Position numbers and translations under genes: made by a program | Notes under the pieces: generated by a model | What the model was told of the DNA's origin: nothing | Database searches by the model: none | The model's input: only the letters and a program-made list of their open reading frames with translations | Part shown: in pieces, positions 17,930-50,600 of the stretch | Layout of the letters: each line of letters starts with the position of its first letter | Numbering within the stretch: position 1 is the stretch's first letter | Source: Alteracholeplasma palmae J233 | GTDB taxonomy: Bacteria; Bacillota_I; Bacilli_A; Acholeplasmatales; Acholeplasmataceae | Assembly: GCF_000968055.1 (NCBI RefSeq) | Contig: NC_022538.1 | Coordinates: 558,001 to 622,000 of the forward strand | Reading direction: 5' to 3' | DNA length: 64,000 nt

Positions 17930-19302
17930 TGAATGATACGATTGTTATAGGATCTGTTATTACAATTACAATTTGTATGCTTGTCCTAATATACATATTT
18001 ATAAAAAAAATCAAAAAAGAAAAACTCAGTGCCGTTGAAGAAAAACAAATGATTTCTGAGGATTCTTTAGCATATCCGCTATTCTTAAAGTATGTAGACC
18101 AAAAAATTAAAACAGAAAAGAAAAATAGTTTCTTTACGTTGATATGGGTAAATATAGATAATTTTATTGAAATTACTGATAATTATAATGAAAAAGATAG
18201 TGATATCTTAATCAATGAAATTCATTATCATCTATCAAATGTTATCCCAAAAGGAACTAAAATAGGATATGGACCAAGAAAAGAAGCTATCTTGATTTAC
18301 CTTCCTGCAATTTATCCAGAAGAACAAATGATAACACTTGCTAAAACAATTAAAAAGGCATCTGAAGTAAAAGTAAGAATATTTGAAGATATTACTATTC
18401 AAAAGACATCAACTGTTTCATACGCAACATATCCATTACAAGGAACAGATGCTAAAACACTTATTAACGGATTAAAGATGGCTATTTATATTTCCGAACA
18501 TACAGGCGGAAACATCATTAAACCATACAGTGCGGATATGAATAAAAATCAGGAATATATTGATTTTTATTATGAATTAAAACAAGCAATACAAAAAAGA
18601 GAATTTAATTTCTTATATCAACCCATTGTTTACTTAAAAGATCATAAAATAAAGGGATTTGAAGCTTTATTAAGATGGAATCATAAAGAAAAAGGACTTC
18701 TAACTCCAGATAAATTTTTAAATATCTTAGAAAATTCAGGTGATATTAACTGGATTGGCCTATGGGGTTTAGAAACTGTTGTTAAAACGATAGAAGAAAT
18801 AAAAAAATACTCAAAAGAAGCATTTACTTTTCATATTAATATCAGTTTAAGACAATTATTAAACTCAGAGGTTGTTTCTGAATTTCAAAAAATCATCACT
18901 AAATATCGTGCATCATCTGAAAAAATCGTCTTAGAACTATTAGAATTTAGTACTGCAGTCTTACAAGATGAAATGATAAAAACCATTTTAAAACTTAAAA
19001 ATATAGGATTTAAATTATCAGTTGATATTAGTGACATTGACTTTCAAATCTTAACTAAAATAGAGCAATACCAAATTGATATTGTTAAATTAGATCATAA
19101 GTTCCAAAAAATAGACAACCAATTGATGAAACAAAAGTTCTTAGAAACATTAAGCCAAATGAAAAATATTACAGTTGTAGTAGAAGCCATTGAAAATAAA
19201 GAACAAGAACAAGCAGCAATAAAAAATAACTTTATCTATGGACAAGGTTATTACTATGATAAACCATTAGAAAAAATAGATTTAATTGAAAGAATCAAGT
19301 AA
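17929..19302 (+). CDS. membrane-anchored degenerate GGDEF-EAL protein
   Basis: 457 aa, one TM helix (about 5-25). The GGDEF-like domain (about 45-195) has GPRKEA in place of the signature. The EAL-like domain (about 215-455) keeps FEALLRW, NISLRQL and IVKLDHKF but replaces the DDFGTG loop by DISDID and the AEGVE motif by VEAIE, losing the second metal-binding Asp. Hence it is more likely a c-di-GMP receptor or a partner of the preceding phosphodiesterase than an active enzyme; that is inference from missing residues. Overlaps the preceding gene by one base, so co-translated with it. The riboswitch promoter begins 17 nt after its stop. Confidence 0.82.
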   Translation: MNDTIVIGSVITITICMLVLIYIFIKKIKKEKLSAVEEKQMISEDSLAYPLFLKYVDQKIKTEKKNSFFTLIWVNIDNFIEITDNYNEKDSDILINEIHYHLSNVIPKGTKIGYGPRKEAILIYLPAIYPEEQMITLAKTIKKASEVKVRIFEDITIQKTSTVSYATYPLQGTDAKTLINGLKMAIYISEHTGGNIIKPYSADMNKNQEYIDFYYELKQAIQKREFNFLYQPIVYLKDHKIKGFEALLRWNHKEKGLLTPDKFLNILENSGDINWIGLWGLETVVKTIEEIKKYSKEAFTFHINISLRQLLNSEVVSEFQKIITKYRASSEKIVLELLEFSTAVLQDEMIKTILKLKNIGFKLSVDISDIDFQILTKIEQYQIDIVKLDHKFQKIDNQLMKQKFLETLSQMKNITVVVEAIENKEQEQAAIKNNFIYGQGYYYDKPLEKIDLIERIK

Positions 19303-19318
19303 CTTATTATCAAATGAT

Positions 19319-19347
19319 TTGACTTTTGATAAAAATAATAATAAAAT
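19319..19347 (+). promoter_or_regulatory. promoter of the first c-di-GMP riboswitch operon
   Basis: TTGACT at 19319-19324, 17-nt spacer, TAAAAT at 19342-19347. Predicted start near 19354 puts the transcript 5' end exactly at the aptamer's P1 strand. Confidence 0.75.
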
Positions 19348-19353
19348 ATAGCT

Positions 19354-19460
19354 ACAATGTAACAAAGGCAAAACTACTGAAAGGTAGTGACGCAAAACTA
19401 AAGGGCCTTTTAAATGGTAGCCAGTTGTCATTTTTCTTGACAGCTGGTTTTTTTGTTTTT
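19354..19460 (+). ncRNA. c-di-GMP-I (GEMM) riboswitch with intrinsic terminator
   Basis: Diagnostic elements in order: GGCAAAAC (19367 onward), a P2 hairpin closed by a GAAA loop, the invariant GACGCAAA (19389-19396), then AAAGGGCCTTTTAAATGGTAGCC of P3 split across 19400-19422. The 3' end overlaps a terminator: CCAGTTGTCA pairs with TGACAGCTGG (one G-U) and is followed by seven T. The 5' segment AATG-T-AAC can pair with GTT-GT-CATT, which is also the 5' arm of the terminator; ligand-stabilised P1 would then prevent termination, an ON switch. Aptamer identity is seen directly; ON logic is inference. Confidence 0.9.
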
Positions 19461-19476
19461 TAAAGGAGGTGGTCAT

Positions 19477-20175
19477 TTGAAATTATCAAGTATTTTCAAA
19501 ACAGGCGTTAAGACAACTAAAGCAAAAGTGATTGCAATATTAGTTCCAGCCTTTATTATTACAGCAACTATTGCATTTCTAACGTTTTATGGACAAAATA
19601 CAGGCAATTTTTCAATTAACATCGATGAGTCTGCACAAATGAAAAATATTTCTATTGCAACAAGTCCGCTTTCAAAAGATAATCAAAAAATTGTGAGAGT
19701 TTCATCTAATCCAATAACCCCAATTAGCTCTGAGAGTTTAGTTTCAACTAAATTACCAGAAATCAAAAATAATGAATCTGGTATGTATCATTCAAGAAAT
19801 TTTATTGCACAAACCTTTTATATTAAAAATGAAAGTGAAACATTGTCAGTTACATTAAGCTATCACTTAATTATTACAGAAGTAGCAAAACAAAAGATAA
19901 CAAGTGATTTTAAGCTTCACCCGATTATTAGAGTGATGATCATAGATGGAGAAACAGAAAACATCTTTGAACCTAATGATAGCAATGATGAAATGGCTAA
20001 TAAAAAGTTTAACGAAGGTTCTCTTATCATTAACGAAAAATCGGCAGTTTTAAATGCAAAACAAGAAAGAAAATACATATTTATCATGTGGTATGACTTA
20101 AAGGCTATCACCCCGGAAACAAAAGAACCTCCTGCATTAAAGTTTCAGTTAAACTTTAAGACTGAGGAGGAATAA
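19477..20175 (+). CDS. single-pass anchored protein, possible TasA-like accessory
   Basis: 232 aa. The start is TTG at 19477, chosen because a perfect AAAGGAGGT lies 6 nt upstream; no ATG is available nearby. A long cationic N-terminus leads into one TM helix (about 18-37) and an extracytoplasmic domain of about 190 residues with beta-sandwich-like alternating strands. Unlike its neighbours it has no F-A-W-F signal-peptide end and the hydrophobic segment is far from the N-terminus, so it probably stays anchored. No confident family. First gene behind the riboswitch, two bases before the next start; it could be the base or initiator of the fibre, like TapA for TasA (inference). Confidence 0.65.
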   Translation: MKLSSIFKTGVKTTKAKVIAILVPAFIITATIAFLTFYGQNTGNFSINIDESAQMKNISIATSPLSKDNQKIVRVSSNPITPISSESLVSTKLPEIKNNESGMYHSRNFIAQTFYIKNESETLSVTLSYHLIITEVAKQKITSDFKLHPIIRVMIIDGETENIFEPNDSNDEMANKKFNEGSLIINEKSAVLNAKQERKYIFIMWYDLKAITPETKEPPALKFQLNFKTEEE

Positions 20176-20176
20176 A

Positions 20177-21088
20177 ATGAGAAAGATATACTTTTCCTTC
20201 ATCGCAGTTTTAGCAGTCTGTCTTACTTTAACAGTTAGCGCATTTGCTTGGCTTAATATAAGTAATATTACATTAGTTGAAGGTATCTATTTAAAAGCAG
20301 GTTCTGGTGACTTATTAGAATTATCCCTTGATGGAATAACTTATAATAAAACCTTAGATCAAAATAGGATAAAAAACAGCCTTAAAAATCTTAAAATAAA
20401 ACCTATTTCAACAAACGACGGAAAAACATTTTATACTAATCCATATCAAAAAAACGATGCACAAGCAAGAAAAAATATAGACTATATGAGCTTTGAAATC
20501 TGGTTTAGAATTACCCCAGAAGAAAACATTTCAGATGAATCAGTCTATAAAGATATTTATTTAGTGAATCATCAACAAGTTACTTATGAACAAAAAGAAA
20601 ATGCTAAAGGCACTTTTATTACCTCAAAAGGTAAACAGTTTAAAAGTGATATAGACTTTAAACTTTCAGAAGAAACAGAGATTAAAAAAACGAAAGTGAA
20701 TACCTATTACGCAAAAGATGCAATGAGAATAGGTGTAGTAAGTAATGATGAAACAAAATTTATACTTGATCCAAGTGGCGTAGAAAAAAATAATTACGCA
20801 TATGGTGCTTTAGATTATTATAATAAAAAGATGCAAACCCATCTTATACCTCCAGTAAATCATATAGAAACGATAACTGAATTATCGGTATTATCTAAAA
20901 ATAAGGCAAATACAATTGAAGACAATAAGTCCCATATAACAACTCTAGAAAAAAAAGACAATAGTTATATTGGCAGAGCTACAATTAATATTTGGCTTGA
21001 GGGTTGGGATCCATATGCATTGGATGCGATTATCAAAGATAATGTTTATATACAATTAGAATTTATAGCAGTAATAAAAGAAAATTAA
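20177..21088 (+). CDS. SipW-type signal peptide, TasA/camelysin-like surface protein (minor subunit?)
   Basis: 303 aa. Seen: signal peptide with two Lys/Arg residues, hydrophobic core and the SAFAW end typical of substrates of SipW-type peptidases; a mature domain that ends with ATINIWLEGWDPYALDA followed by IQLEF, the same ending as the next gene's product. Both also share a KAGSGDLLELSLDG / QAAQGGFLLSSDG start after the signal. Hence paralogous subunits of one structure, with this one longer and less regular. GAGGAGGAATAAA precedes the ATG. TasA-like fibre role is inferred from the signal peptide class and adjacent SipW genes. Confidence 0.75.
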   Translation: MRKIYFSFIAVLAVCLTLTVSAFAWLNISNITLVEGIYLKAGSGDLLELSLDGITYNKTLDQNRIKNSLKNLKIKPISTNDGKTFYTNPYQKNDAQARKNIDYMSFEIWFRITPEENISDESVYKDIYLVNHQQVTYEQKENAKGTFITSKGKQFKSDIDFKLSEETEIKKTKVNTYYAKDAMRIGVVSNDETKFILDPSGVEKNNYAYGALDYYNKKMQTHLIPPVNHIETITELSVLSKNKANTIEDNKSHITTLEKKDNSYIGRATINIWLEGWDPYALDAIIKDNVYIQLEFIAVIKEN

Positions 21089-21107
21089 AAATAAGGAGAC
21101 TTTAAAA

Positions 21108-21974
21108 ATGAAAAATTTAACAACTAAAATAGTTACATCAGTATTAGCATTAGTTTTAACAGTAGCAGCACTTGGAACAGGTGTATTTGCTTGGTTCACA
21201 ATTAACAATCAAGCTAAAGCAACAGGATTTGAAGGTCAAGTACAAGCAGCACAAGGTGGTTTCTTACTAAGTTCAGACGGCACTAATTATACAACTTCAC
21301 TTGATTTAAATGAAATTTTAAAAGATAAACTATCAAAACTTAAATTTAAAGATTTAACTACTAAAGATGGTATTAGCTTTGTTGATTCTAATAATAAGGA
21401 AGCATTAGAAACAAGTTATATTACATTTGATCTAAATTTTATTGCAATTAATTTTACAGAAGTATTTGTAACAACAGACATTACTGGAGATACAACTTCA
21501 TGGAAATCAGAATATGCTGTAGATGGTGTTAATGTTGGCGATACTTTAGTAAGTAGTGCAGCAAACGCTTTAAGAGTTGCTTATGTTACAGAGGATAAAA
21601 CAGTAAAATATGTAGAAGCATCACAAGATTATAATGGAACAGGTTCTATTGCTGGAACAGCTAAGAAAAATACACAAGGTATTTTAACAAAAGAAACAAA
21701 TTTTGCTTACCAATATTTAGTAAAATCAGGTTCTACAAAAGCATTTGATGCAACTAAGGAAACAGTACTAGTTGCAGATGAAGCTAAGAGATTAGGTAAT
21801 ACAGACGCAAAAGTCTTAACATTAACAAAAACTGAAGCTCCAGCAGATTATGCTGAATATACAAACGCAGGTAAATTAACTGTAAACATCTGGATTGAAG
21901 GATGGGATGCAGAAGCATTTAATGCTATTTTAAATGGTAAAGTCAAAGTAGACTTTAACTTCCAAGCTAAATAA
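21108..21974 (+). CDS. SipW-type signal peptide, TasA-like surface protein (probable major subunit)
   Basis: 288 aa. Signal peptide with hydrophobic core and GVFAWF end (residues 24-30), Ala/Thr/Gly/Asn-rich mature part of about 258 residues, conserved C-terminal NIWIEGWDAEAF and a final beta strand VKVDFNF. Codons are more uniform than in neighbours and it is the only gene of the operon followed at once by a strong hairpin without U-run (21994-22017), a layout that often protects an abundant mRNA segment; hence the guess that it is the major subunit. AAGGAGAC lies upstream. Family: TasA/camelysin-like, by signal peptide and context rather than by clear domain match. Confidence 0.75.
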   Translation: MKNLTTKIVTSVLALVLTVAALGTGVFAWFTINNQAKATGFEGQVQAAQGGFLLSSDGTNYTTSLDLNEILKDKLSKLKFKDLTTKDGISFVDSNNKEALETSYITFDLNFIAINFTEVFVTTDITGDTTSWKSEYAVDGVNVGDTLVSSAANALRVAYVTEDKTVKYVEASQDYNGTGSIAGTAKKNTQGILTKETNFAYQYLVKSGSTKAFDATKETVLVADEAKRLGNTDAKVLTLTKTEAPADYAEYTNAGKLTVNIWIEGWDAEAFNAILNGKVKVDFNFQAK

Positions 21975-21993
21975 TCATAAAACTAATTTGTGG

Positions 21994-22017
21994 TAAGAGG
22001 CTTATTAAAGCCTCTTA
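21994..22017 (+). repeat. perfect stem-loop between the major surface protein gene and sipW
   Basis: TAAGAGGCTT (21994-22003) and AAGCCTCTTA (22008-22017), 10 perfect pairs, ATTA loop. The 3' side lacks a U-tract, so it is more likely an mRNA-processing/stabilising hairpin or partial attenuator than a full terminator. Confidence 0.7.
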
Positions 22018-22055
22018 TTACAAAACTATTAAAAAAGTTATATAAGAGGTAGACA

Positions 22056-22766
22056 ATGAAAGAAAATAAAAATATCTTCAAAAAAACTATATCGATGATA
22101 CTCAATATCTTTTTTTATGTAATGATCCTTATCTTATTAATTTTTTCAATAGTGAATTTAACAACTAAAAGTGTTGATCAAATACCATCTTTATTCAATA
22201 AAGGATTTGTTACAGTTTTATCAGACTCAATGAATGGTAAACATACAACATATAAGGTAGACTCATTTAAAAAAGATGCATTAGTATTTGTTAGAATGAT
22301 TGATGAAAAGGAAGCATTAAAAATAGGTGATGTTGTTGTTTTTTATGGACAACTAGACTTAGATAATCCTTCTGTAAAAGCATTTATCATTCACCGTATT
22401 GTGCATATTGAAAATGATTACATCTACACACAAGGCGATAAGGTAAATGAATTAAGACCCTATGACAAAGATTCTTTAAACAATCAAAACTATGAAATTA
22501 ATAAAAGAAGTGATGTTAAAGCGATTGCTACAAGCAAAATAGAAAATATTGGCGGGACAATCAACTATTTAAGAACTCCAAGTGGGTTTGGGTTATGCAT
22601 CTTACTTCCAATTTTAATTTTATTAATCATTCAATTTGCTATATTAGTCATTCGTATTATCAATAAAAATAAAATAGAACTTAAAAATAAGTATGAAACA
22701 GAAAAAGAACTTATGAAACAAGAAATATTAAAAGAATTAGAAAAAAACAAACAAGGAGATCAATAA
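22056..22766 (+). CDS. SipW-like signal peptidase I (S26B) 1
   Basis: 236 aa membrane peptidase that would cleave the F-A-W-type signal peptides of the neighbours. Seen: TM about 14-36, catalytic Ser58 in VLSDSMNG, GDVVVFYG strand near 91-98, His113 in IIHRIV (ER/SipW type use His where bacterial type enzymes use Lys), Asp128 in TQGDKV and Asp137, then a second TM about 177-200 and a charged coiled tail. All catalytic positions of the S26B subgroup are present. Follows the hairpin at 21994; coupled to the AAA gene 2 nt downstream. Confidence 0.88.
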   Translation: MKENKNIFKKTISMILNIFFYVMILILLIFSIVNLTTKSVDQIPSLFNKGFVTVLSDSMNGKHTTYKVDSFKKDALVFVRMIDEKEALKIGDVVVFYGQLDLDNPSVKAFIIHRIVHIENDYIYTQGDKVNELRPYDKDSLNNQNYEINKRSDVKAIATSKIENIGGTINYLRTPSGFGLCILLPILILLIIQFAILVIRIINKNKIELKNKYETEKELMKQEILKELEKNKQGDQ

Positions 22767-22767
22767 T

Positions 22768-24306
22768 ATGCAAGAATTTTCACGTTGGTATATAGAAATT
22801 CTCCAAAAAATTGGTGAAGGCTTTATTGACTTCTTTAAAGGCATTTATCAGTTTTTCGTTAATGTATTCATTAAAACTCCATCAGATGCATTTAAAAGTT
22901 TTGTTGATGCATCTAGTAATTTTACAATAGTAAGTTGGATAACAGCTTTTATTGTTTTAATTATTAATATTATTTTTATAGTTGCTTTTTTCTATCTGCT
23001 TTTTCAGTACTTAAAAAAATATATTAGATTTACAAAAAAAGAAATTGACAAGGATTTATTATTAAATGAAATTAATGAACTTAATAAAACTCTTATTAAT
23101 GTAACTAATGAAAAAAATGCTATTCTAGCTATTAAAACAGATTTAGCGCCTCATAAAGGCATACAAAGTACCCTCATCAGTTATAGTAATGAAGATGAAA
23201 AAAAAGATCATACAGAAGATTCAAGATTTGTTAAACTAATAGAAGTAGATGAAACATATCAATATAAAATTATGCAAACTAACATGCATGAAGATGATAT
23301 GATTAATTTAAATGAGCTCGTTAAACGATTTATTAATTTTTCTGCCTCACAACTGAATTTATACTATACAGAAAAAACTGTATCTATTTTTATAGCAGGC
23401 ATGGCTACTTCTAAAACAATGATTTTAGAAGGTATCTCAGGAACTGGTAAAACATCTTTACCTTACGCATTTGGTAAATTCTTTAATAACGATGCATCAC
23501 TGATATCTGTACAACCTTCATGGAGAGATAGAACAGAGTTACTTGGTTACTTGAATGAATTTACTAAAAAATTTAATGAAACAGATTTCTTAAAATCTAT
23601 CTATGAAGCAAGCTATAGAACAGATATTAACTTTATTATTTTAGATGAAATGAATCTTGCAAGAGTTGAATATTACTTTGCTGATTTTCTATCAGTATTA
23701 GAATTACCAGCAAAAGAAAAATGGCTCATTGATGTGACAGCTGATCAAAACTCAAAAGATCCAATCCATCTTAAAGGAGGCAAACTTTTATTACCACAAA
23801 ATATTTGGTTTGTAGGAACTGCTAATAAAGATGATTCTACCTTTACAATCACAGATAAAGTTTATGATAGAGCTGCCTCAATAGAAATGAATGATAAGGC
23901 TAAATTTATTGATGCTAAGCCTACTGCTAATATCCATATGAGTTATGAATATTTAAATGAACTATTCACTAAAGCCCAAAAAGACTATCCAATTGAGATG
24001 AAGACATTAGAAAATCTTAATTTACTTGATGAATATATTTCAAGTAAGTTTAAAATAACATTTGGTAATCGTATTATGAAACAGATTAAAGAATTTATTC
24101 CTGTTTATGTTGCCTGTGGCAAAGATGAAATAGACGGGCTTGATTATTTAGTCTCAAGAAAAATAATCCGTAAATTTGAAACACTTAATTTAGCTTTTTT
24201 ACAAAAAGATTTAGAAAATTTAATTAAATACCTAGATAAACTATTTGGAAAAGACAACTTTTTAACAACTAAACAAATGATTAAAGAATATATCAGAGAG
24301 AATTAG
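22768..24306 (+). CDS. membrane-anchored McrB-like AAA+ ATPase
   Basis: 512 aa. N-terminal amphipathic region, a TM helix about 52-78, a heptad-like segment about 85-115, then an AAA+ domain like the GTPase/ATPase subunit McrB: Walker A GISGTGKTS near 222, Walker B INFIILDEMNLARVE near 286-300, sensor-like VGTANKDDST near 350 and a C-terminal helical lid. Classical McrB has a cytosolic DNA-binding N-terminus; here it is replaced by a membrane anchor. Lies between two SipW peptidase genes in the riboswitch operon and is followed by a DUF2357/McrC-like gene. Suggests a membrane remodelling or assembly ATPase for the fibre rather than restriction (inference). Confidence 0.85.
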   Translation: MQEFSRWYIEILQKIGEGFIDFFKGIYQFFVNVFIKTPSDAFKSFVDASSNFTIVSWITAFIVLIINIIFIVAFFYLLFQYLKKYIRFTKKEIDKDLLLNEINELNKTLINVTNEKNAILAIKTDLAPHKGIQSTLISYSNEDEKKDHTEDSRFVKLIEVDETYQYKIMQTNMHEDDMINLNELVKRFINFSASQLNLYYTEKTVSIFIAGMATSKTMILEGISGTGKTSLPYAFGKFFNNDASLISVQPSWRDRTELLGYLNEFTKKFNETDFLKSIYEASYRTDINFIILDEMNLARVEYYFADFLSVLELPAKEKWLIDVTADQNSKDPIHLKGGKLLLPQNIWFVGTANKDDSTFTITDKVYDRAASIEMNDKAKFIDAKPTANIHMSYEYLNELFTKAQKDYPIEMKTLENLNLLDEYISSKFKITFGNRIMKQIKEFIPVYVACGKDEIDGLDYLVSRKIIRKFETLNLAFLQKDLENLIKYLDKLFGKDNFLTTKQMIKEYIREN

Positions 24307-24309
24307 AAA

Positions 24310-25881
24310 ATGAAAAGACGATATGATGTAGAACTATTTCATGACATCTTAATAAGTGCTTTAAATAAACTAGAAATAGAAACAGACTTCCCTAGTGTTT
24401 TTTACCAAGCATTTTCAGATGGAATAAATCAGACATCTTTCCACCACTATTCTGAAACTAAGGAATTTGATGAATCGTGGATATCTAAAATAGAACTATA
24501 TTACCCTAGCCTTGAAAAAATTACAAAAACATTAAAATCGAATTTAAAGTATCAAGAAGATATCACAATCATTGAAAAAGCAAAAAAAATTGATAGTAAA
24601 TCAGTAAGACATTTAGCTTCTCATACACAATATATTAAAGAAGTAAAACCCTATGTGATTCCTAAAAAAATACTAGTTAACCATTCAGAAATTGAATATG
24701 GTATTTATGAAAATAGAATGATTATGACTTTAATTGATAAATTACAACTTTTTATTGAAAAAAGACTAGAAATTATCAGTAATTATCAAAGTTTAGAAAA
24801 AGATACATTTAAGCATCATTCTAAAATGAAACTTGATGAACAAGACTATGAGATCTCAATTGAAATCAGTAAAAATGGCTATGAGAAGACAGACGTTAAT
24901 ACTAGCATTTTACAAAGAGCTAAACACTTATATAAACTTATTAATGGTCTTAAAAATAGTGAGTTTATGAGTTTATTAAGGGGACAAAAACAAGTAGTGG
25001 CTCCTATTATGAAAACTCAAATTATCTTAAAAAATCCAGATTATAAAAATGCATATCAATTATGGCTTTTCTTAGATCAATATGAAACATTAGGATATAA
25101 AGTTTTTACTACTAATAAGCAAAAACAAATAGACTCGATTTATCAAAAACATATTCTAAATAATATATTGCAATTATTTTCTACATATTTTTTACATGAT
25201 AATAAAAGTGATATTTCATATTATAATCCTGTTGAAAAAACTTATAAAACACACTTAAAAACAGTAGATTATATTGAAAAACCTAAAGAAATTGCCCCTA
25301 TTAAAATAGATGAAACAGATTCCAATGAGTATTTATTATATCAACTCGCTAAACAATTTGGTAAAATGGTAACAAGCAAAGAAAAAAATACGACAAGATT
25401 TAAAGAATCAGTTAAAAGACTAAATGAAATAACAGATCAAATTATCTTTAAAAATCTTAATTCCAATTTAAATGAAAATGTCATAATAGGTATTAATAAT
25501 CATGATTTAGAAAACAAAAAGTTATCTGAACTTGAAGATAAATATGAAAAGATTCAAATTTATAGAAAACAAAAACAAAAAGACTTAGAATCTATTATTA
25601 ACTTTGAAAAAAAGATTCAAGCAGAATATGAAACTTTACAAAATAGTGCTTTAACTGAAGTTAAAGAACAGTCAAATGAACCATTTATAGAAAATTTTAA
25701 ACAAGAATCGTTATTACTAGATAAAAAAATTGCAAAGTTAAAAGAAAAATATCGTAAAGAATTGCTTAATATCAAGCAAAAACAAAAAGAAAAATTAAGA
25801 AAACAAAAAGAGAAAAACAAGTTAAAACTAAAAAAAGAAACAGATAAACAAAAAGAAAAGTTAAAAAAAATAAAAAAATAG
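24310..25881 (+). CDS. DUF2357/McrC-like protein, partner of the McrB-like ATPase
   Basis: 523 aa, cytosolic by composition. The central part has SVRHLASH near 98 and EYGIYENRMIMTLIDKL near 136-152, a stretch recalling the VYENR-x-x-K helix of DUF2357 proteins that pair with McrB-type ATPases. I cannot find a PD-(D/E)xK nuclease motif like that at the C-terminus of McrC; instead the last ~130 residues are a highly charged Lys/Glu coiled coil ending in a poly-basic tail. Start 3 nt after the ATPase stop, so an obligate pair. Function unknown; probably a stator or regulator of the ATPase (inference). Confidence 0.7.
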   Translation: MKRRYDVELFHDILISALNKLEIETDFPSVFYQAFSDGINQTSFHHYSETKEFDESWISKIELYYPSLEKITKTLKSNLKYQEDITIIEKAKKIDSKSVRHLASHTQYIKEVKPYVIPKKILVNHSEIEYGIYENRMIMTLIDKLQLFIEKRLEIISNYQSLEKDTFKHHSKMKLDEQDYEISIEISKNGYEKTDVNTSILQRAKHLYKLINGLKNSEFMSLLRGQKQVVAPIMKTQIILKNPDYKNAYQLWLFLDQYETLGYKVFTTNKQKQIDSIYQKHILNNILQLFSTYFLHDNKSDISYYNPVEKTYKTHLKTVDYIEKPKEIAPIKIDETDSNEYLLYQLAKQFGKMVTSKEKNTTRFKESVKRLNEITDQIIFKNLNSNLNENVIIGINNHDLENKKLSELEDKYEKIQIYRKQKQKDLESIINFEKKIQAEYETLQNSALTEVKEQSNEPFIENFKQESLLLDKKIAKLKEKYRKELLNIKQKQKEKLRKQKEKNKLKLKKETDKQKEKLKKIKK

Positions 25882-25893
25882 GAGAATAGTCAA

Positions 25894-26502
25894 ATGAAAC
25901 TAGGCTTGAAAAGAATATTAAAACTAATTTCATTGTCTCTACTTATCATTTTAGTGATATTCTTGATATTTAATTTAATCTCTTTAACTAGAAAAAAACC
26001 AATTCCTATTTTTGGTTATCGCTATTCATTAGTTGTCAGTGACTCTATGAAACAAGAAATTCCTAAAGGGTCTTATATTCTTTATAAGGAACAAGAAAAG
26101 TATGAATTAACAGATATCATTGTCTATGAAAGTAAATATGATCATAGACTCATTGTCCATGAAATTATTAATATAACTTCAAATGGATTTGAAACTAAAG
26201 GAACTAATAATCATGTAAGTGATCAGAAAAGAACAGATGCTTATCAAGAAGATTATATTAAAGGAAATCAAATACTAGGAAAAGTTATTGGGCATTCTAA
26301 TCTTTTTGGCCTAGGAAACATTTTACTTAATAAAACAGGAAATATCATTTTATTTGTGATTGCCATTATTTTTATATTATTTATTATTCAAGTACACGAA
26401 TTAATTAAACATCTTAAAAAAAGACAAGAAGAAAAATACAAAAAAGAATTAGAAAAAGAAGTTAAAAAAGAGTTAGAAGAAATCGAAAAACTTGAATTAT
26501 AA
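25894..26502 (+). CDS. SipW-like signal peptidase I (S26B) 2, divergent active site
   Basis: 202 aa. TM about 10-30, Ser51 in VVSDSMKQ, His89 in LIVHEI (followed by Glu rather than the usual Arg), TKGTNN where most relatives have KGD-type sequence, Asp110 retained, second TM about 148-170, charged C-terminal coil. The paralogue 1 gene upstream keeps the canonical residues, so this copy has either a shifted specificity or reduced activity. Last gene of the first riboswitch operon; the second riboswitch promoter begins inside its last codons (-35 at 26492). Confidence 0.82.
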   Translation: MKLGLKRILKLISLSLLIILVIFLIFNLISLTRKKPIPIFGYRYSLVVSDSMKQEIPKGSYILYKEQEKYELTDIIVYESKYDHRLIVHEIINITSNGFETKGTNNHVSDQKRTDAYQEDYIKGNQILGKVIGHSNLFGLGNILLNKTGNIILFVIAIIFILFIIQVHELIKHLKKRQEEKYKKELEKEVKKELEEIEKLEL

Positions 26503-26520
26503 CTAGAAATATAGTATAAT
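26492..26520 (+). promoter_or_regulatory. promoter of the second c-di-GMP riboswitch operon
   Basis: TTGAAT at 26492-26497, 17-nt spacer, consensus TATAAT at 26515-26520. The -35 lies inside the 3' end of the preceding peptidase gene. Confidence 0.8.
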
Positions 26521-26524
26521 ATAC

Positions 26525-26634
26525 CTACATTGGCAAAGTTATCGAAAGATAATGACGCAAAGCTATAGGGCCTTTAATATGGTAGCCAGCTGCCTTGAAC
26601 TTAATTTTTAAGTTTAAGACAGTTGGTTTTTTAC
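26525..26634 (+). ncRNA. second c-di-GMP-I (GEMM) riboswitch with intrinsic terminator
   Basis: Same order of conserved blocks as the first copy: GGCAAAG near 26532, P2 hairpin TTATC-GAAA-GATAA, GACGCAAAG near 26553, TAGGGCCTTTAATATGG, GTAGCC at 26582. The distal part forms a long terminator: CCAGCTG with CAGTTGG, a 2x2 internal loop and TTGAACTTA with TAAGTTTAA, then six T. Aptamer 3' strand and terminator 5' arm overlap at GCCAGC. Two aptamers with different P2 and expression-platform sequences show they diverged rather than arose by a recent copy. Confidence 0.9.
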
Positions 26635-26653
26635 TTTATAAGGAGGCAAAGAT

Positions 26654-27274
26654 ATGAAAAAAACATTTATCTTATTAACAAGTTTACTATTCTTAGTACT
26701 AAGTATGTCAGTATCAGTTTTTGCTTGGTTTACTAAGGTAGAGTCAAACGGTTCAACTAGTATTTCAGGAAGTGTTGAAAATGGCGTTAGAATTGATGTT
26801 ACGCAAGAATTTGAAGGTATTTTTGATAATGTTACTTATAAACATTTAGTTTATGTAAATGAAAAAGAACTAGAAGAAAATAGTAATTTTATTTCAGGAT
26901 TAGCAACTGAAGTGCACATTAAAGTTAAAAATCAGTCTCATTTAGAGACAACAGTTTTTCTAGATTTAGTTGTAAAAAAAGAAGAACCAAATGCAAGACC
27001 ATCAGGTCCACAAGAAGGATTAGTTTATTTAGTACACAGTGAAAACACATCATATATATTAGATAATCTTTCAAATAAAAATAAAGATTTAAAAATGGTT
27101 GAAAAAATTAATGAATATAATTATGCAGGAATTAAATTAAAGCCTGAAGAAGAAAAAGAAATTACAATAGCTGTTTGGGGTAACCATACACAACTTCAAG
27201 AAGAATATAAAACAATCTATCATTCCCTTGTTTACCGTACCATTCTTAAAGTTACAGGAGGTATTGCCAAATGA
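26654..27274 (+). CDS. SipW-type signal peptide, small TasA-like surface protein
   Basis: 206 aa. Signal peptide with Leu/Ser core ending SVFAWF (residues about 20-26), then a beta-rich domain with KVKNQSHLETTVFLDL (ligand of the fold seen in TasA/camelysin-like proteins) and a C-terminal EEKEITIAVWGNH followed by a final strand. GGAGGCAAAG lies before the ATG. First gene behind the second riboswitch; its stop overlaps the next start by 4 nt. The mature domain resembles a compact fibre subunit or the anchor for the large repeat protein that follows (inference). Confidence 0.72.
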   Translation: MKKTFILLTSLLFLVLSMSVSVFAWFTKVESNGSTSISGSVENGVRIDVTQEFEGIFDNVTYKHLVYVNEKELEENSNFISGLATEVHIKVKNQSHLETTVFLDLVVKKEEPNARPSGPQEGLVYLVHSENTSYILDNLSNKNKDLKMVEKINEYNYAGIKLKPEEEKEITIAVWGNHTQLQEEYKTIYHSLVYRTILKVTGGIAK

Positions 27275-29508
27275 GAAAATTAACTTTTTTAATGATTGCT
27301 GGACTACTTTTATTATTAACATCTATTGGTGTTTTTGCGTGGTTTGTAATTAAACCGCTAGAATATAGTATTATGTTACAAAGTGAAAATTTAATGGAAA
27401 CTAAAATGACAGTTACTATTAAAGATGAAATGGTTGTTTATAATAATGAAAAAAATTATGATGAAAATCACTATGCAGTCATTATTAATTCTAAAGAAGA
27501 ACTTGAAAGTTTGAAAGTTGACTTTACTGTCAGTGCATTTACTAACCTTTATGTGAAAGTTAAGGTTGTAACTGAATGGTTTATTAATGATAAAGTCATT
27601 CACTCAAACTCAAATATTAATTATGATATAGCAAACCCAATCTATGAAACTAAAACTAATGAGACTGAAACTCCATTAAAGATCAATGAAATAGAAAACA
27701 TTGACCAGTATGGGAACCATTATTATAAAGATATGGTGAATAAAAATACTTCAATGGCTTTTCCTTTTATCACAAAAGCCACACTAGATAATGAAAATGC
27801 ATTTAATAATGGGGCAAAACTAAGATTTAGTTTAATTGTTTCAGGGATACAAGCAAATAGAAAAGAAGCTTGGGGGACTGTTAATGCTAAAGAGCTTAGC
27901 TTTAGCGAAGATCAAATAATAGATGTAAAAGTAAAGTTTAAAGGTATTTCTACACCATATGATGCGGTTGTTATTAATTTTTGTAATAAGGCAGATTTAA
28001 AAAACACGCAATACATATGGACTGATAAAATTAAAAATAAAAGAATTGAACTTACAAATGGAACATATCACCTACATTTAGAAATCCCTAACTTTTTAGA
28101 TTTTACTTATCAAATTGAAAATAATATATTATCTTTAACAATCAGTTATACAAAAAATGTTACAGAAGAAAACTGGGCTCAAGAACATATTGTTTATAGC
28201 CCTAGTATAGTCAATCTTTGGGATAGCGAAACTCAATATAAGTCAAAAGATATTGTTTACTACGAAGATGATAAAGGTAAAATAACATACTGGAAGGCAC
28301 TAACTGATAGCAGAGGTGCTAACCCAACTACGACTAGCTGGGCTTGGGCTAGTATGGAAAGAAAATGGCAATCTAATATAGTATATGATGTTGGAACTAT
28401 TGTCTATTATAAAGATGCTTTCTGGCAAAGTGAGCAAAAAAATGCATCGGAGCCTGGAAAATCACATCAATGGACTAGATTAGATAAAACTTGGAGTATT
28501 TATAATCAAGAAAATAGATACTACAAAAAAGGTGATTACATTATAAAGGGAAAAGAACTTTACGTTCTAACAGCTGATAATTATGGTGGCAACCCTGAAG
28601 ATGAATGGTCAAACTGGTTTCATGTGACAACCCAATGGAAACAGGCAAGATACGCTAAATACGATATTGTTGAGCATAATGGAAATTTATGGATATCAAT
28701 TAAAGATGATAACAGAGTTAATATTGATGAGCAAAGTGGAAATGGTTGGAGAAAACTAGATAATAACTTTGAGTTTGTACAGTTTAATACATACAAAGAA
28801 TTTGACATTGTGAAATATGAAAATCAATATTACATAGCAAGTAATAATGTATGGGGAGAACCTAGTATTTTAGATTATAAAGGGTTTATTTACCTGAACT
28901 TGAATCAAGCAAATGTATACGATATAAATACTAACTATCAAAAATTCCAAGTAGTATCTTATGAGGTAAATCAAACTAAAAAATATTTTGTATCACTTGA
29001 AGACTCTAATCAAACTGAACCAACTCAATCATACAAATGGAAAGAAATAACATCAGAGTATAGTCCTTATACACAATATAAAGAGTTTGATTTTGTTAAC
29101 TATAATAATCTTACATATGTTTGGGTTTATGATACCCCATCTAGCAAAAATGATATACCTGGTGTTTCTTATGGTTGGAAGGTTGCTACTCAAACATGGA
29201 ACCCAATTAATAACTATAGAAATAACTTAGAACAAACGATTTTCAGTTATATTTATGAAGATAATAAATGGTGGGTTTGGACTGGAAAAGATAATACAAG
29301 AAGTACATTAAGACCAGGAATCATTGGTAGTAACTGGCAAGAATTAACCGAATATTGGAGAATATATAACGAATATAAAAAAGGTGATAAAGTTATTTTT
29401 GATGGCTCTTTCTGGGAAGCATTAGAAGATCCAGGTAAAGTTGGCCCAGGAAATGACTTTACTATTTGGAAAGAATATAAGATAGAATGGAACCCAAATA
29501 GACCTTAA
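27271..29508 (+). CDS. SipW-type signal peptide, large surface adhesin with CBM5/12-like repeats
   Basis: 745 aa. Signal peptide ending GVFAWF (about 18-23), a TasA-like N-terminal domain to about 225, a linker domain, then from about residue 316 to 740 roughly nine units of ~46 residues with the pattern W-x(5)-Y-x(2)-G/K-D-x-V-x-Y-x(2)-x-W/Y-x-A-x(n)-P-x(n)-W. This is the layout of chitin-binding CBM5/12 modules: aromatic residues in fixed places suggest polysaccharide binding. No LPxTG or TM at the C-terminus, so attachment must be through the N-terminal domain or fibre. ATGA overlap with the preceding gene. Ends at a strong terminator. A c-di-GMP-controlled adhesin for glycan surfaces is the best reading (inference). 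Confidence 0.78.
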   Translation: MRKLTFLMIAGLLLLLTSIGVFAWFVIKPLEYSIMLQSENLMETKMTVTIKDEMVVYNNEKNYDENHYAVIINSKEELESLKVDFTVSAFTNLYVKVKVVTEWFINDKVIHSNSNINYDIANPIYETKTNETETPLKINEIENIDQYGNHYYKDMVNKNTSMAFPFITKATLDNENAFNNGAKLRFSLIVSGIQANRKEAWGTVNAKELSFSEDQIIDVKVKFKGISTPYDAVVINFCNKADLKNTQYIWTDKIKNKRIELTNGTYHLHLEIPNFLDFTYQIENNILSLTISYTKNVTEENWAQEHIVYSPSIVNLWDSETQYKSKDIVYYEDDKGKITYWKALTDSRGANPTTTSWAWASMERKWQSNIVYDVGTIVYYKDAFWQSEQKNASEPGKSHQWTRLDKTWSIYNQENRYYKKGDYIIKGKELYVLTADNYGGNPEDEWSNWFHVTTQWKQARYAKYDIVEHNGNLWISIKDDNRVNIDEQSGNGWRKLDNNFEFVQFNTYKEFDIVKYENQYYIASNNVWGEPSILDYKGFIYLNLNQANVYDINTNYQKFQVVSYEVNQTKKYFVSLEDSNQTEPTQSYKWKEITSEYSPYTQYKEFDFVNYNNLTYVWVYDTPSSKNDIPGVSYGWKVATQTWNPINNYRNNLEQTIFSYIYEDNKWWVWTGKDNTRSTLRPGIIGSNWQELTEYWRIYNEYKKGDKVIFDGSFWEALEDPGKVGPGNDFTIWKEYKIEWNPNRP
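28216..29490 (+). repeat. about nine CBM5/12-like repeat units inside the adhesin gene
   Basis: Units begin near 28216, 28363, 28492, 28633, 28768, 28912, 29053, 29197 and 29353. They are diverged at DNA level; conservation is in Trp/Tyr and Gly-Asp positions of the protein, so this is old duplication under selection. Confidence 0.65.
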
Positions 29509-29521
29509 AATAAGTTTAAAT

Positions 29522-29570
29522 AAAACTTTCCTTTAGATGCTAAAAATCTAAATAAGGAGAGTTTTTTTAT
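29522..29570 (+). terminator. intrinsic terminator closing the second riboswitch operon
   Basis: AAACTTTCCTT pairs with AAGGAGAGTTT (one G-U), and an inner TTTAGAT pairs with ATCTAAA; seven T follow. Confidence 0.85.
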
Positions 29571-29733: not shown

Positions 29734-31257
29734 ATGAAAAAAATTTTTCAAATTTCTGAAGAGTTAATAAAAAAGAATTACATTTTTTTAAGTGAAAATC
29801 AGATGCCACAAATAGTTGTTGATAAGAAGAAAAAAAAGATAGTTTGGATCAATACACAAGCTTTGTTTCTTTTTAAAGAAAGCCAAAATATTGATGAAAA
29901 CAATCTCAATGTATCAGACATCAGTGAACACTTGGCTCAATCAATTGATAACAATGATTCAGTCAGTATTTTTGAATACCAAAAAGAGAAGTATGTAGGG
30001 ACTTTCATCTATACTAAAGATGAAAACTATCCTTATATGCTCATACTTATAGAAAAAAATGATTCAAAAATAGATTTAGACTTTTTGAAACAAAGATATG
30101 AAACAACAAGTGAAATGCTAATTATGTTAGATAAGAACTTTAATCCGATTGACTATTCAAAAGCTTTTTTAGACCTTTTTGAAAAAGAAGTTTGGGATGA
30201 TTTTTATATATTTTTAGATGGAAATTTAGAAGTTAAAAAAGTAAAAGAATGTGGTGTTAAGCACAACCAAACTGAAAGAGTTTTAAAGAAAACTAAAAAA
30301 GGCAATTTAGTCATTTTAAACAAAAGAGTGTCTATGCTAAAAGTTGATAATAACCTGATAGGATATTTATTAGACTATGAATATCAAAGCGAAGATATCT
30401 TCGGATATCAAGATGGATCAACTTTTAGAGAAATTATAAATAACATTGTTGATGGTGTCTTAATATCTTCTAAAGATCATATTACACTTTGGGTCAATGA
30501 TTCTATTACCAGAATGAGTGGCTATACAGCAAATGAACTTATAGGAACCAAAGTTGGGAAAATGAAGTCTAACCTACACGACAGTCAGTTTTACAAAAGA
30601 ATGTGGGAAAAACTTGATTCAGGAAATTCTTGGGAAGGTACGATTTGGAATAAACGTAAAACAGGAGAAACTTTTCCTCTATGGCTTCAAATCATGCCTG
30701 TTAGGAATAATAAGAATCAAATTTCACACTATGTAGCTATTTATAAAGACTTATCAGAGTTTGATTCACCTAATAAGAGTTTATTATTAGCCTTAGAAAA
30801 AGATCCTTTAACAAGCATTTCTAATAGAACTAACTTTATAAGAGCCGTTACTAACCTTTTAGAAACTAAGAAACAAAAAGGGACTATTTTATTTATTGAT
30901 ATGGATAACTTTAAAGAAATTAATGATAACTACGGTCATTTAATTGGTGATAAAGTCTTATTAGAGCTTTCAGCCAGATTGACCCAAGTATATTCTAATA
31001 ACTTAGTTGCTAGATATGGTGGCGATGAGTTTATTGTCTATCTAGAAAATGTCTATGAAAAAGATGATGTATTAGATAATCTATTAAAATTACATCGAAT
31101 TACAAAAGAAATAGTTATGATAGATACCATAGAGTTTCAAATTGATTTAAGTGCAGGCTATGCCACACACGATGAACAAGAGACAGATATCCTTAGATTA
31201 ATCAAAGAAGCGGATGCGTCTATGTATGAAATTAAACGTGAGAAAAAGAATTTATAA
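29734..31257 (+). CDS. PAS-GGDEF diguanylate cyclase
   Basis: 507 aa, no TM segment. Seen: an N-terminal PAS-like region (about 15-110), a second (about 115-220), a clear PAS/PAC at about 232-345 with WEGTIWNKRKTGE, then a GGDEF domain: DPLTSISNRTNF at its start, FIDMDNFKEIND near 388, GHLIGDKVL and the intact RYGGDEFIVY near 428. The RxxD inhibitory site normally five residues before GGDEF is absent (YSNNLVA), so product inhibition at that site is not expected. It makes c-di-GMP from two GTP. It is the only complete GGDEF in the window and would supply the ligand for the two riboswitches upstream. GGGTGA precedes the ATG. Confidence 0.92.
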   Translation: MKKIFQISEELIKKNYIFLSENQMPQIVVDKKKKKIVWINTQALFLFKESQNIDENNLNVSDISEHLAQSIDNNDSVSIFEYQKEKYVGTFIYTKDENYPYMLILIEKNDSKIDLDFLKQRYETTSEMLIMLDKNFNPIDYSKAFLDLFEKEVWDDFYIFLDGNLEVKKVKECGVKHNQTERVLKKTKKGNLVILNKRVSMLKVDNNLIGYLLDYEYQSEDIFGYQDGSTFREIINNIVDGVLISSKDHITLWVNDSITRMSGYTANELIGTKVGKMKSNLHDSQFYKRMWEKLDSGNSWEGTIWNKRKTGETFPLWLQIMPVRNNKNQISHYVAIYKDLSEFDSPNKSLLLALEKDPLTSISNRTNFIRAVTNLLETKKQKGTILFIDMDNFKEINDNYGHLIGDKVLLELSARLTQVYSNNLVARYGGDEFIVYLENVYEKDDVLDNLLKLHRITKEIVMIDTIEFQIDLSAGYATHDEQETDILRLIKEADASMYEIKREKKNL

Positions 31258-47608: not shown

Positions 47609-50600
47609 ATGAAAGGGTTAATCAAAATATCGTCTTTTTTTGTTGGTGTTTTGGCGATAGCTGGTATCGTTTTTTGGATCATCAGTTCACAAAATAAAAC
47701 AAAAGAATATACTGTACGATTCGAGTCAGAAAAAGTTTTAGTTGAAAGTAAAAAAGTTAAAAAAGGTGAAAAACTAGAGGAGCCAACAAAACCTAATAGA
47801 ACAGGTTATGATTTTGATGGCTGGTGGAAAGAACCTACATATATAAGTGAGTGGAAATTTACTATTGATACTGTAGAAAGTGATATAACGCTCTATGCGA
47901 AATGGGAACCAACGGTTAACGAAACTGTAACAATTACTTTCAATACCGACGGTGCTCCTGAAATAGCACCATTAATTATTGACAAAGGGACTAAAGCAGA
48001 ATTGCCAACCCCTAAAAAAGAAGGATACACATTTACAGGTTGGCATATTGGAAATGTTAGATTTGATTCTACTAAACCAGTTGATAATAACATTACATTA
48101 ACTGCAAAATGGGAAGTAATCACTCCAGAAACTAAATCATATAAAGTAGTATTTAACTATGATAATAATACTCCTAACTTAGAAGTAGAAATTTTAGAAA
48201 ATGGAATCATCACAAAACCAGCAAATCCAACAAAAGAAGGATATGTTTTTTCAGCTTGGTATGTAGATAATACAGAATACAATTTTAATAGCCCAGTAAC
48301 AAAGGATATTACAGTTACTGCAAGATGGATTAAAGAACATACGGTAACTTTCACTGTTGATGGAACAACTTACAATACTGTTAAAGTAACTGATAATAAT
48401 AAAGTTCTAGTGCCAACCAATAATCCAGTTAAAGAAGGATTTATATTCAAAGAATGGCACAACAGTAATGGAGAACTATTTAATTTTGAAAGTACTATAA
48501 CAGAAGATACTGAAATAGTTGCGTATTTTGAAGAAAAAGAAGCTAATGCTAATTACTATACTGTTACATTTAATTCAAATAGTGGGCAATCTGTTGCTAG
48601 TCAAGAATTAAAAGAAGATCAATTAGTTAAAGAACCAGGTAAACTTACAAAAGAAGGGTATAATTTCTTAGGATGGTTCCTAGGAGAAACTAAATACAGT
48701 TTTGATACTCCTATTAAAAGCAATTTAGAATTAGTAGCAAAATGGGAAATACATACATTTAAAGTGGCTATTGATTATGATTATGATGGGTTAACTGAAA
48801 ATAAAACAGTAGACTGGAATACAAAAATTCAATTAGACAATCCTACTAGAGAAAGTCATGATTTTGTTGAATGGCAATTAGATGGACAAACTTTTGATAA
48901 AGAAACATTAATAACAAAAGATATTGCTCTAAAAGCTATATGGAAAATAAAGACATATGAAGTAACCATAAACCCAAATAACGGTAGTGATGTTACTACA
49001 CAAACAATTAATTGGGGAGAAAGACCACAATTATTGGGAAAAGAAGATTTAAGTAAAGAAGGATATGTTTTTTATGCATGGTATGCTGGAAGTATAAGAG
49101 ATAATGAAAATTTATTAGTTAAACAAAATCTTGAATTCAAACTAAAGTGGGCAAAAGCTGCAGCAACAGCTGAAGGATTAAAAGATGCATTAACTAAAAT
49201 TGAAGCTGATGTTCCAATTTTAATTACTGCACCAATTACACTTACAGAACCATTACAACTTCCTGCAGGTGCACTTTTAGATGGTGGAGGACAAACAATT
49301 TCGTTTGCTCCAATACAAGAACCAGTAAGATTCAGATCTAATGCAATGCTATTAAATGCAGTAAGAATGAATACTAAAACCGGATTAGTCATTGAAAATA
49401 GTGATAGTCAATTAGTTCATACTAAAATTGCAGGAGCAACCGGTTTTGGTATTACAGTTAAAAATGCTGAAAATGTTTTAATTGAAGATGTTGAAATCTT
49501 AGATTCTGAACAAGGAGCTATTTTAATTACGGGTTCAACAGTTACAATTAAAGATGTAACGATGACTAATAATTTTAAAAATATTATTGTAGAAGAAGGA
49601 AATAAGAACCCAAGAGTAACGACTCAAGGATCTTTAATAACTAATAACACTCAAGCATTGATTATTATTGAACAAGAAGTTGAAAATATAGAAAATTGGT
49701 TTGATACTAACCTAGTAGCTATAAGAATGGAAAATGAGACTAGAGTTCAACTAGTAGAAGAGCTTAATGAAACCTTAGGACAAGCATATACATTTAGAAA
49801 TGGTATCAACACTATTGTAAAAGATTATAAAACATTGATTGATAATGTAACTATAGATAACATTACGTTATTAGATGACATTAATTTAACAGAACAAATC
49901 ATCATTAGAAGAGCACTAACTTTAGATGGTAATAACAAAACAGTGACACTAGATAATAGAAGTGGCTGGGATGCACAATATCTAATACAAGTTTATAATG
50001 CTACAGATGTAGTTATTAAAAACATCAGATTACAAGGTGGAGATGCTGGATTATTAGTTAATGCCTCTGAAGTAAAAGTTGAAAACATTACTTTAGATAA
50101 CCATGAATTTGGTGGCATTGAAGTATCTAAAGGAGAAAAACCAACTCATACCCCTGCTTTAGAAGTGAATGGATTAACACATACAAATATTAATGAAACC
50201 TTACCAATTATTTGGATAGATAATTTATCTACAATTGGTGACTATTCAGTAATAGTTGATGGATTAAAAGAATACAAACATCCTAAAAAAGATCAACAAT
50301 GGTATGTATTGGAAAGTTACGATACAGAAGCACCAGAGTTAGAAACAAATACTATAGTAAACCAAGATGGTAAAATAATCATCACAATTAAAGCTAATGA
50401 TGAAAATCTACATTCATTAGAAATAGATCACAATTTTGAAGGAATCTTACCAGAATTCACAGTATACGCAAGTGAATCAAATCCTTATGGAACAGATGCC
50501 CTTAGAAATGAATTTGAAAAACAAGGTGTAGAAGTAGTATTTGAATCAGGTAAATGGACAATCATAATTGATGGAAGTTCATATGAAAAACTAATAAAAA

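What the first reader, a model, noticed from the sequence alone, without database searches (positions are those of the whole stretch)
19319..29570. Self-contained c-di-GMP surface module in an Acholeplasma-like genome
Two GEMM riboswitches, each with its own promoter and terminator, lead a seven-gene and a two-gene operon of SipW-type substrates, SipW-like peptidases and a McrB/McrC-like pair; active PDE (15581), degenerate EAL (17929) and active GGDEF (29734) genes flank them. Seen: all genes and RNA motifs. Inference: c-di-GMP level, made and removed locally, switches assembly of a surface fibre and a glycan-binding adhesin. I know of no described c-di-GMP-controlled fibre system in wall-less bacteria.
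Basis: partly seen in the sequence, partly recalled or inferred. Interest (0 to 1): 0.92.

Follow-up and report, generated by a model that had tools for sequence, protein, structure and literature searches.

The report
c-di-GMP-switched surface-protein assembly module
A wall-less bacterium carries two RNA switches that are predicted to turn on, when the signal molecule c-di-GMP is high, a set of genes for exporting and assembling surface proteins; the same gene set, with an odd motor-protein pair at its centre, recurs in many other Firmicutes and I found no published description of it.

Summary
Both c-di-GMP-I aptamers score 61-62 bits (cut-off 35) and are the only two in this 1.55-Mb genome. 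In both, the terminator's 5' arm is the aptamer's 3' strand, so c-di-GMP is predicted to switch the operons ON; this overlap holds at 49 of 76 sites tested (0.45 expected by shuffling).

The layout [PDE]-[broken GGDEF-EAL]-switch-A-B-C-SipW-McrB-McrC-SipW-(usually a second switch)-D-E recurs across Acholeplasmatales (RF01051 in 91 of 160 genomes). Its core, often with the switch, also occurs in Izemoplasmatales and walled Clostridia, so it is not a wall-less speciality.

The McrB-like ATPase is membrane-anchored (79 of 79). No nuclease domain was found in its McrC-like partner, which is fused to a SipW peptidase in two Ruminococcus loci. I read the pair as part of the SipW export/assembly machine, not a restriction system.

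Corrections: the module is not self-contained (two other GGDEF-motif genes lie elsewhere; the flanking cyclase is rarely conserved in place). A fibre is not shown: no TasA-family hit, no significant fold match. The adhesin's CBM5/12-like repeats are supported.

The parts
15581..17929 (+). membrane-anchored degenerate-GGDEF + intact EAL protein: predicted c-di-GMP phosphodiesterase
   Evidence: PF00563 E 4.2e-68; all catalytic EAL residues present incl. DDFG; conserved upstream of the module in most relatives with enough flank
17929..19302 (+). GGDEF-EAL protein with broken GGDEF and, in the EAL domain, loss of the second Asp of DDFG only: predicted c-di-GMP receptor or crippled PDE
   Evidence: PF00563 E 3.2e-43; second Asp replaced in all 15 orthologues aligned, the other catalytic/binding residues kept
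19319..19347 (+). promoter-like TTGACT-17-TAAAAT of operon 1
   Evidence: 10/12; not above chance on its own; placed just upstream of the aptamer
19357..19432 (+). c-di-GMP-I riboswitch aptamer 1
   Evidence: RF01051 61.3 bits
19419..19457 (+). intrinsic terminator whose 5' arm is the aptamer's 3' strand (ON switch)
19477..20175 (+). gene A: small membrane-anchored protein, TFYGQxxGxF motif after the TM in most relatives; first in operon 1
20177..21088 (+). gene B: SipW-type substrate-like (SAFAWL signal)
21108..21974 (+). gene C: SipW-type substrate-like (GVFAWF signal), candidate major surface subunit
   Evidence: fold model pLDDT 69.5, no significant structural match
22056..22766 (+). SipW-type signal peptidase 1 (Ser/His)
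   Evidence: NF046067 E 4.5e-11 (below cut-off); Ser and His invariant in 20/20
22768..24306 (+). membrane-anchored McrB-like AAA+ ATPase
   Evidence: profile matches McrB in PDB, E 4e-4 over the AAA region only; N-terminal TM; 69% mean column identity in order
24310..25881 (+). McrC-like / DUF2357-related partner; no nuclease domain detected, coiled-coil C terminus
   Evidence: DUF2357 in 8 of 14 orthologues, E to 5e-13; model helical C terminus
25894..26502 (+). SipW-type signal peptidase 2
   Evidence: TIGR02228 65.6 bits, cut-off 51.85
26492..26520 (+). promoter-like TTGAAT-17-TATAAT of operon 2
   Evidence: 10/12
26522..26597 (+). c-di-GMP-I riboswitch aptamer 2
   Evidence: RF01051 61.7 bits
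26585..26633 (+). terminator 2, 5' arm overlaps the aptamer 3' strand (ON switch)
26654..27274 (+). gene D: SipW-type substrate-like (SVFAWF)
27271..29508 (+). gene E: large surface protein (GVFAWF signal) with CBM5/12-like repeats, candidate glycan-binding adhesin
   Evidence: PF02839 E 1.5e-5 just under cut-off; 2.2e-7, 1.5e-17 and 5e-12 in orthologues
29734..31257 (+). PAS-GGDEF diguanylate cyclase, GGDEF intact; not part of the conserved module
   Evidence: PF00990 E 4e-36; motif YGGDEF

Best explanation
This is a c-di-GMP-induced surface-protein export and assembly module. Shown by sequence: two c-di-GMP-I aptamers, each sharing its 3' strand with a terminator. Predicted from that: without c-di-GMP the terminator forms and both operons are off; bound c-di-GMP holds the strand in the aptamer and transcription runs on. 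Operon 1 then makes small anchored or secreted proteins (A, and B and C with SipW-type 'FAW' signals), two SipW-type peptidases that cut them, and a membrane-anchored McrB-like AAA+ protein with a McrC-like partner without a detected nuclease. The pair is inferred to power or gate export, processing or assembly of the substrates, not DNA cleavage. Operon 2 adds D and the carbohydrate-binding-repeat protein E, presumably displayed on or anchored to that surface structure. The neighbouring EAL phosphodiesterase resets c-di-GMP. The neighbouring GGDEF-EAL protein, which lacks one predicted metal ligand but keeps the binding residues, is inferred to be a protein-level c-di-GMP receptor for the machine. 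c-di-GMP itself comes from several cyclases across the genome. Whether the product is a fibre or a coat is open.
For: Aptamers at 61-62 bits. Terminator/aptamer overlap at 49/76 sites against 0.45 expected, maximum 3. Of 77 order-level riboswitch sites, the first gene is A-type in 37, FAW/xA[WYF]-type in at least 23 and a large PDE-like gene in 5. Same gene order, with one or more switches, in most fetched relatives from three families, including a genome of exactly A. laidlawii PG-8A's size. In 80 named McrB loci: SipW within 1.5 kb upstream in 53/60, McrC-like adjacent in 63/71, a SipW within 5 kb downstream in 57/71, a FAW substrate upstream in 32/36, N-terminal TM in 79/79. RF01051 in the neighbourhood of the module in 13 of 16 loci I chose, five of them titled Clostridia. 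McrC-SipW fusion ORFs in two Ruminococcus loci. The EAL domain of the broken protein lacks only the second Asp of DDFG in 15/15. No PilZ in the genome. Riboswitch and McrB presence co-occur in 78 genomes, with 13/11 discordant and 58 with neither (not corrected for kinship).
Against: No binding, expression or microscopy data. The window substrates hit neither the TasA/camelysin family nor the SipW-cognate signal model, and the fold of C has no significant PDB match. About a third of riboswitch sites show no overlapping terminator, so control may differ there. The McrC-like model is poor (pTM 0.38). A paralogous McrB/McrC-like pair next to giant surface proteins lacks SipW, so the pair does not need SipW everywhere. 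In some Clostridial loci the second EAL protein keeps DDFG, so loss of catalysis is not universal.
Confidence: 0.68

Rival explanations
1. Same switch and export, but the products are a non-fibrous coat or a set of membrane-anchored adhesins rather than a TasA-like fibre.
For: No TasA/camelysin or filament hit for C by sequence or fold; E carries carbohydrate-binding repeats; a surface coat would suit cells without a wall.
Against: Several small FAW-signal substrates plus a dedicated SipW resemble known SipW fibre operons such as sipW-bsaA of C. perfringens (PMC7395162).
Confidence: 0.35
2. The McrB/McrC-like pair is a defence (restriction-type) system that merely sits in the operon.
For: The AAA region matches PADLOC candidate PDC-M26A (E 5e-39) and E. 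coli McrB weakly.
Against: 85 of 94 related McrB-like genes are SipW-linked; the N terminus is a membrane anchor (79/79); no nuclease domain in Pfam scans of McrC-like members; two McrC-SipW fusions.
Confidence: 0.06
3. The aptamers switch the operons OFF, or respond to another cyclic dinucleotide.
For: Known c-di-GMP-I switches work in both directions and some GEMM-I variants prefer cGAMP (my knowledge).
Against: The terminator's own 5' arm is the aptamer 3' strand, which makes ligand binding anti-terminating; the genome carries GGDEF-motif cyclase genes; the GGC of the binding core matches the c-di-GMP consensus.
Confidence: 0.06
4. Self-contained local c-di-GMP circuit: only the flanking PDE and cyclase set the level the switches see.
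For: PDE and broken EAL protein are linked to the module across the order; a switch precedes the PDE in several relatives (L041, L042, L049, L050), which would give local feedback.
Against: Two other GGDEF-motif genes elsewhere in this genome; the cyclase at 29734 is not conserved in place in most relatives.
Confidence: 0.08

Closest known systems
c-di-GMP-I (GEMM-I) riboswitches upstream of surface-protein genes in Firmicutes
   Same: Same Rfam family, terminator-type expression platform, surface-protein targets (the known examples are from my own knowledge)
   Different: Here the predicted sense is ON, two switches control one export cassette and its partner operon, and the layout repeats across an order of wall-less bacteria
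SipW-TasA (Bacillus) and SipW-BsaA (Clostridium perfringens, PMC7395162) matrix-fibre operons
   Same: SipW-type peptidase beside its signal-peptide-bearing substrates
   Different: Two SipW genes around an AAA+/McrC-like pair, FAW signals, no detectable TasA/camelysin homology, riboswitch control
McrBC type IV restriction system
   Same: AAA domain of the McrB type next to a McrC/DUF2357-related partner
   Different: Membrane anchor at the N terminus, no nuclease domain detected, SipW linkage and fusion
PADLOC candidate defence family PDC-M26A
   Same: Related AAA domain
   Different: Context is surface-protein export, not a defence island
GGDEF-EAL c-di-GMP receptors that no longer catalyse (LapD/FimX type)
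   Same: Membrane-anchored, both motifs damaged, binding residues kept
   Different: Only the second Asp of DDFG is lost in the EAL domain; the partner would be an export machine, not a periplasmic protease

Membership tests
c-di-GMP-I riboswitch (RF01051) | covariance-model score above gathering cut-off, full-length aptamer | tested here: met
   61.3 and 61.7 bits against 35, model 1-87 of 87
c-di-GMP-I riboswitch (RF01051) | expression platform mutually exclusive with the aptamer | tested here: met
   terminator 5' arm is the aptamer 3' strand in both; 49/76 against 0.45 by shuffles
c-di-GMP-I riboswitch (RF01051) | binds c-di-GMP | not testable with these tools
   needs in-line probing
SipW/ER-type signal peptidase | catalytic Ser and His in place of the bacterial Ser/Lys pair | tested here: met
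   Ser and His invariant in 20/20
SipW/ER-type signal peptidase | curated model cut-off | tested here: inconclusive
   sipW2 passes TIGR02228 (65.6 against 51.85); sipW1 31.8, below; neither reaches the Bacillus SipW equivalog cut-off of 190
TasA/camelysin SipW substrates | PF12389 or TIGR04088 match | tested here: not met
   no match for window substrates; TIGR04088 only below cut-off in Clostridial homologues; PF12389 in 2 of 14 orthologues at E 0.14
TasA/camelysin SipW substrates | fold similarity to TasA or other filament subunits | tested here: not met
   AlphaFold model pLDDT 69.5, no Foldseek match below E 0.08
McrBC restriction system | McrB-type AAA domain | tested here: met
   profile hits E. 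coli McrB, E 4e-4
McrBC restriction system | DNA-binding N terminus of McrB | tested here: not met
   hydrophobic membrane segment there in 79/79; McrB match limited to the AAA region
McrBC restriction system | PD-(D/E)XK nuclease domain in McrC | tested here: not met
   Pfam finds DUF2357, low-complexity or coiled-coil matches, or a fused signal peptidase, but no nuclease
EAL phosphodiesterase | E, N, E, DD, K, E, Q catalytic set | tested here: met
   complete in 15581-17929; second Asp of DDFG missing in 17929-19302 and in the 14 orthologues aligned with it
diguanylate cyclase | GGDEF motif | tested here: met
   ARYGGDEF in 29734-31257

The most novel reading that the evidence does not exclude
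The McrB/McrC-like pair is the energised core of an undescribed class of SipW-dependent surface-protein assembly machine, shared by wall-less Acholeplasmatales, Izemoplasmatales and walled Clostridia, and gated by c-di-GMP twice: at transcription by ON riboswitches and at the protein level by an EAL receptor.
Probability: 0.42. Interest if true: 0.87.

Novelty: new variant of a known kind. Interest (0 to 1): 0.73.

Why it matters
A. laidlawii was noted in 2008 to carry 14 GGDEF/EAL proteins (PMC2408644), and I found no paper giving them a use in a wall-less cell; this gives a concrete, testable output for c-di-GMP there. More broadly, an AAA+/McrC-like pair beside and sometimes fused to SipW peptidases would link a fold known from DNA restriction to protein export, in many uncharacterised gut and rumen Firmicutes. 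All key steps can be tested with ordinary reporters and gene deletions.

Tried and rejected
TasA/camelysin membership of the substrates: Pfam, NCBIfam, PDB-sequence and Foldseek all negative. Structure search of the McrC-like protein: model too poor (pTM 0.38), top hits are coiled-coil noise. Promoter scan: positions fit but hits are at chance frequency. McrB tree: giant-protein-linked copies did not resolve as one clade once the distant L054 pair was included; not pursued. Papers on Acholeplasma with c-di-GMP or diguanylate, SipW with McrB or DUF2357, and SipW/TasA with a c-di-GMP riboswitch gave nothing describing this module; the Lazarev 2011 genome paper is not held, and the Kube 2014 genome paper was seen only as a citation.
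Full report
What is there. They are the only two in the complete 1,554,229-base genome. Genes and order are as described. The genome lacks Mur ligases and penicillin-binding transpeptidases, each found in 10 of 14 control genomes, so the wall-less reading holds. The size matches what I remember for Acholeplasma palmae J233.

How the switches work. In both leaders the terminator's 5' arm is the aptamer's 3' strand (GCCAGTTGTCA...TGACAGCTGGT followed by T's in the first), so aptamer and terminator exclude each other and ligand binding should let transcription through: an ON switch. I tested this on 76 distinct sites from this genome and relatives. In 49 a hairpin of -8 kcal/mol or better, followed by a T run, starts inside or at the aptamer's 3' end; dinucleotide shuffles of the downstream sequence give 0.45 on average and 3 at most. 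Of the 77 distinct sites in hand, the first gene downstream is the A-type membrane protein in 37, an xA[WYF]-type surface protein in at least 23, and a large gene (450-1000 aa, here taken as PDE-like) in 5. Direct binding is untested.

Conservation. 91 of 160 order genomes carry RF01051. Among the 20 fetched neighbourhoods, the order PDE, broken GGDEF-EAL, switch(es), A, B, C, SipW, McrB-like, McrC-like, SipW, and in most a second switch with D and E, recurs in three families. One genome has exactly the published size of A. laidlawii PG-8A (1,496,992 bases; PMC2408644), the species in which 14 GGDEF/EAL proteins had been noted. In several relatives (L041, L042, L049, L050) another switch precedes the PDE itself, which would give negative feedback. 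Presence of RF01051 and of the McrB-like gene co-varies (78 both, 13 and 11 discordant, 58 neither; also with genus g11, the reduced genomes I take for phytoplasmas, left out), without correction for kinship.

Beyond the order. The McrB-like alignment found 544 relatives among the pattern matches in GTDB contigs; the best 80 loci were kept. In those, SipW lies within 1.5 kb upstream in 53/60, a McrC-like gene is adjacent in 63/71, another SipW follows within 5 kb in 57/71, and at least one FAW-signal protein lies upstream in 32/36. The records include Izemoplasmatales, rumen Bacilli, Christensenellaceae, Clostridia and Ruminococcus. Rfam finds c-di-GMP-I near the module in 13 of 16 loci I picked, five of them titled Clostridia or Clostridiales (L110, L116, L125, L130, L134). 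The pairing of c-di-GMP with this module is therefore not peculiar to wall-less cells; a class-level search agrees on breadth (133 of 395 genomes).

The McrB/McrC-like pair. The McrB-like protein matches E. coli McrB only over the AAA region (E 4e-4). All 79 long members have a hydrophobic N-terminal membrane segment. The McrC-like protein shows DUF2357 in 8 of 14 orthologues and in three of seven distant members; no nuclease domain was detected, and its C terminus is coiled coil. In two Ruminococcus loci (L143, L147) the McrC-like ORF ends in a SipW domain (E 4e-34 and 2e-36), which is strong evidence for working together. Paralogous pairs stand behind giant surface proteins (2000-2500 aa, in this genome with cadherin-like domains) and another broken GGDEF-EAL protein, without SipW. 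I infer an ATP- or GTP-driven role in moving, processing or assembling surface proteins. PADLOC's PDC-M26A is the nearest catalogued relative found.

c-di-GMP proteins. The PDE keeps all catalytic residues. In the EAL domain of the broken protein exactly one position, the second Asp of DDFG, is replaced in all 15 orthologues, while E, N, E, first Asp (14 of 15), K, E and Q stay. That pattern suggests selection for binding without turnover. No PilZ protein exists in the genome, so riboswitches and EAL proteins are the recognisable receptors. The cyclase at 29734 has an intact GGDEF, but two other GGDEF-motif genes (one GGDEF, one AGDEF) lie elsewhere, so 'self-contained' fails.

What is not shown. 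C, the candidate major subunit, hits no TasA/camelysin or SipW-cognate model and has no significant structural match. The FAW signature is seen in four ORFs of the window, all in this module. 'Fibre' thus remains an inference from analogy with SipW operons such as sipW-bsaA (PMC7395162). E's CBM5/12-like repeats are supported by orthologues.

Novelty. Switch, peptidases and EAL proteins are known kinds; the arrangement, its ON logic before both operons, its breadth and the McrB/McrC-SipW coupling were not found in the open library, which lacks many subscription papers.

Noticed in passing
L053:361-12592 (own genome 748,360-760,591); also L055, L056, L057: Giant surface protein (2528 aa, nine cadherin-like stretches here) followed by a degenerate GGDEF-EAL gene and a second membrane-anchored McrB/McrC-like pair, without riboswitch or SipW; also in the genome of A. 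laidlawii size and two others.
   Followed up: partly
L054:1820-15489 (own genome about 901,800-915,500): A third, divergent cluster: two McrB-like genes around a McrC-like gene, with a 1629-aa protein before and a transglutaminase-core protein after.
   Followed up: partly
L143:7353-10307 and L147:2827-5748: McrC-like proteins fused to a SipW-type signal peptidase in Ruminococcus MAGs.
   Followed up: yes
L041, L042, L049, L050 (upstream of the large EAL gene): In relatives of another family of the order a c-di-GMP-I switch also precedes the phosphodiesterase gene, suggesting negative feedback.
   Followed up: partly
window 47609-56395: 2928-aa protein with Listeria-Bacteroides repeats, right-handed beta helices and eight pectate-lyase-like adhesive domains: a second large putative adhesin in the window, without a riboswitch.
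   Followed up: partly
L006, L029, L030, L036, L038, L039 (upstream of gene A): Tandem double and triple c-di-GMP-I switches, most with their own overlapping terminator, before operon 1 in some genera.
   Followed up: no
L084: A contig titled Candidatus Omnitrophota holds the module almost as in Acholeplasmatales; probably a mis-binned contig.
   Followed up: no
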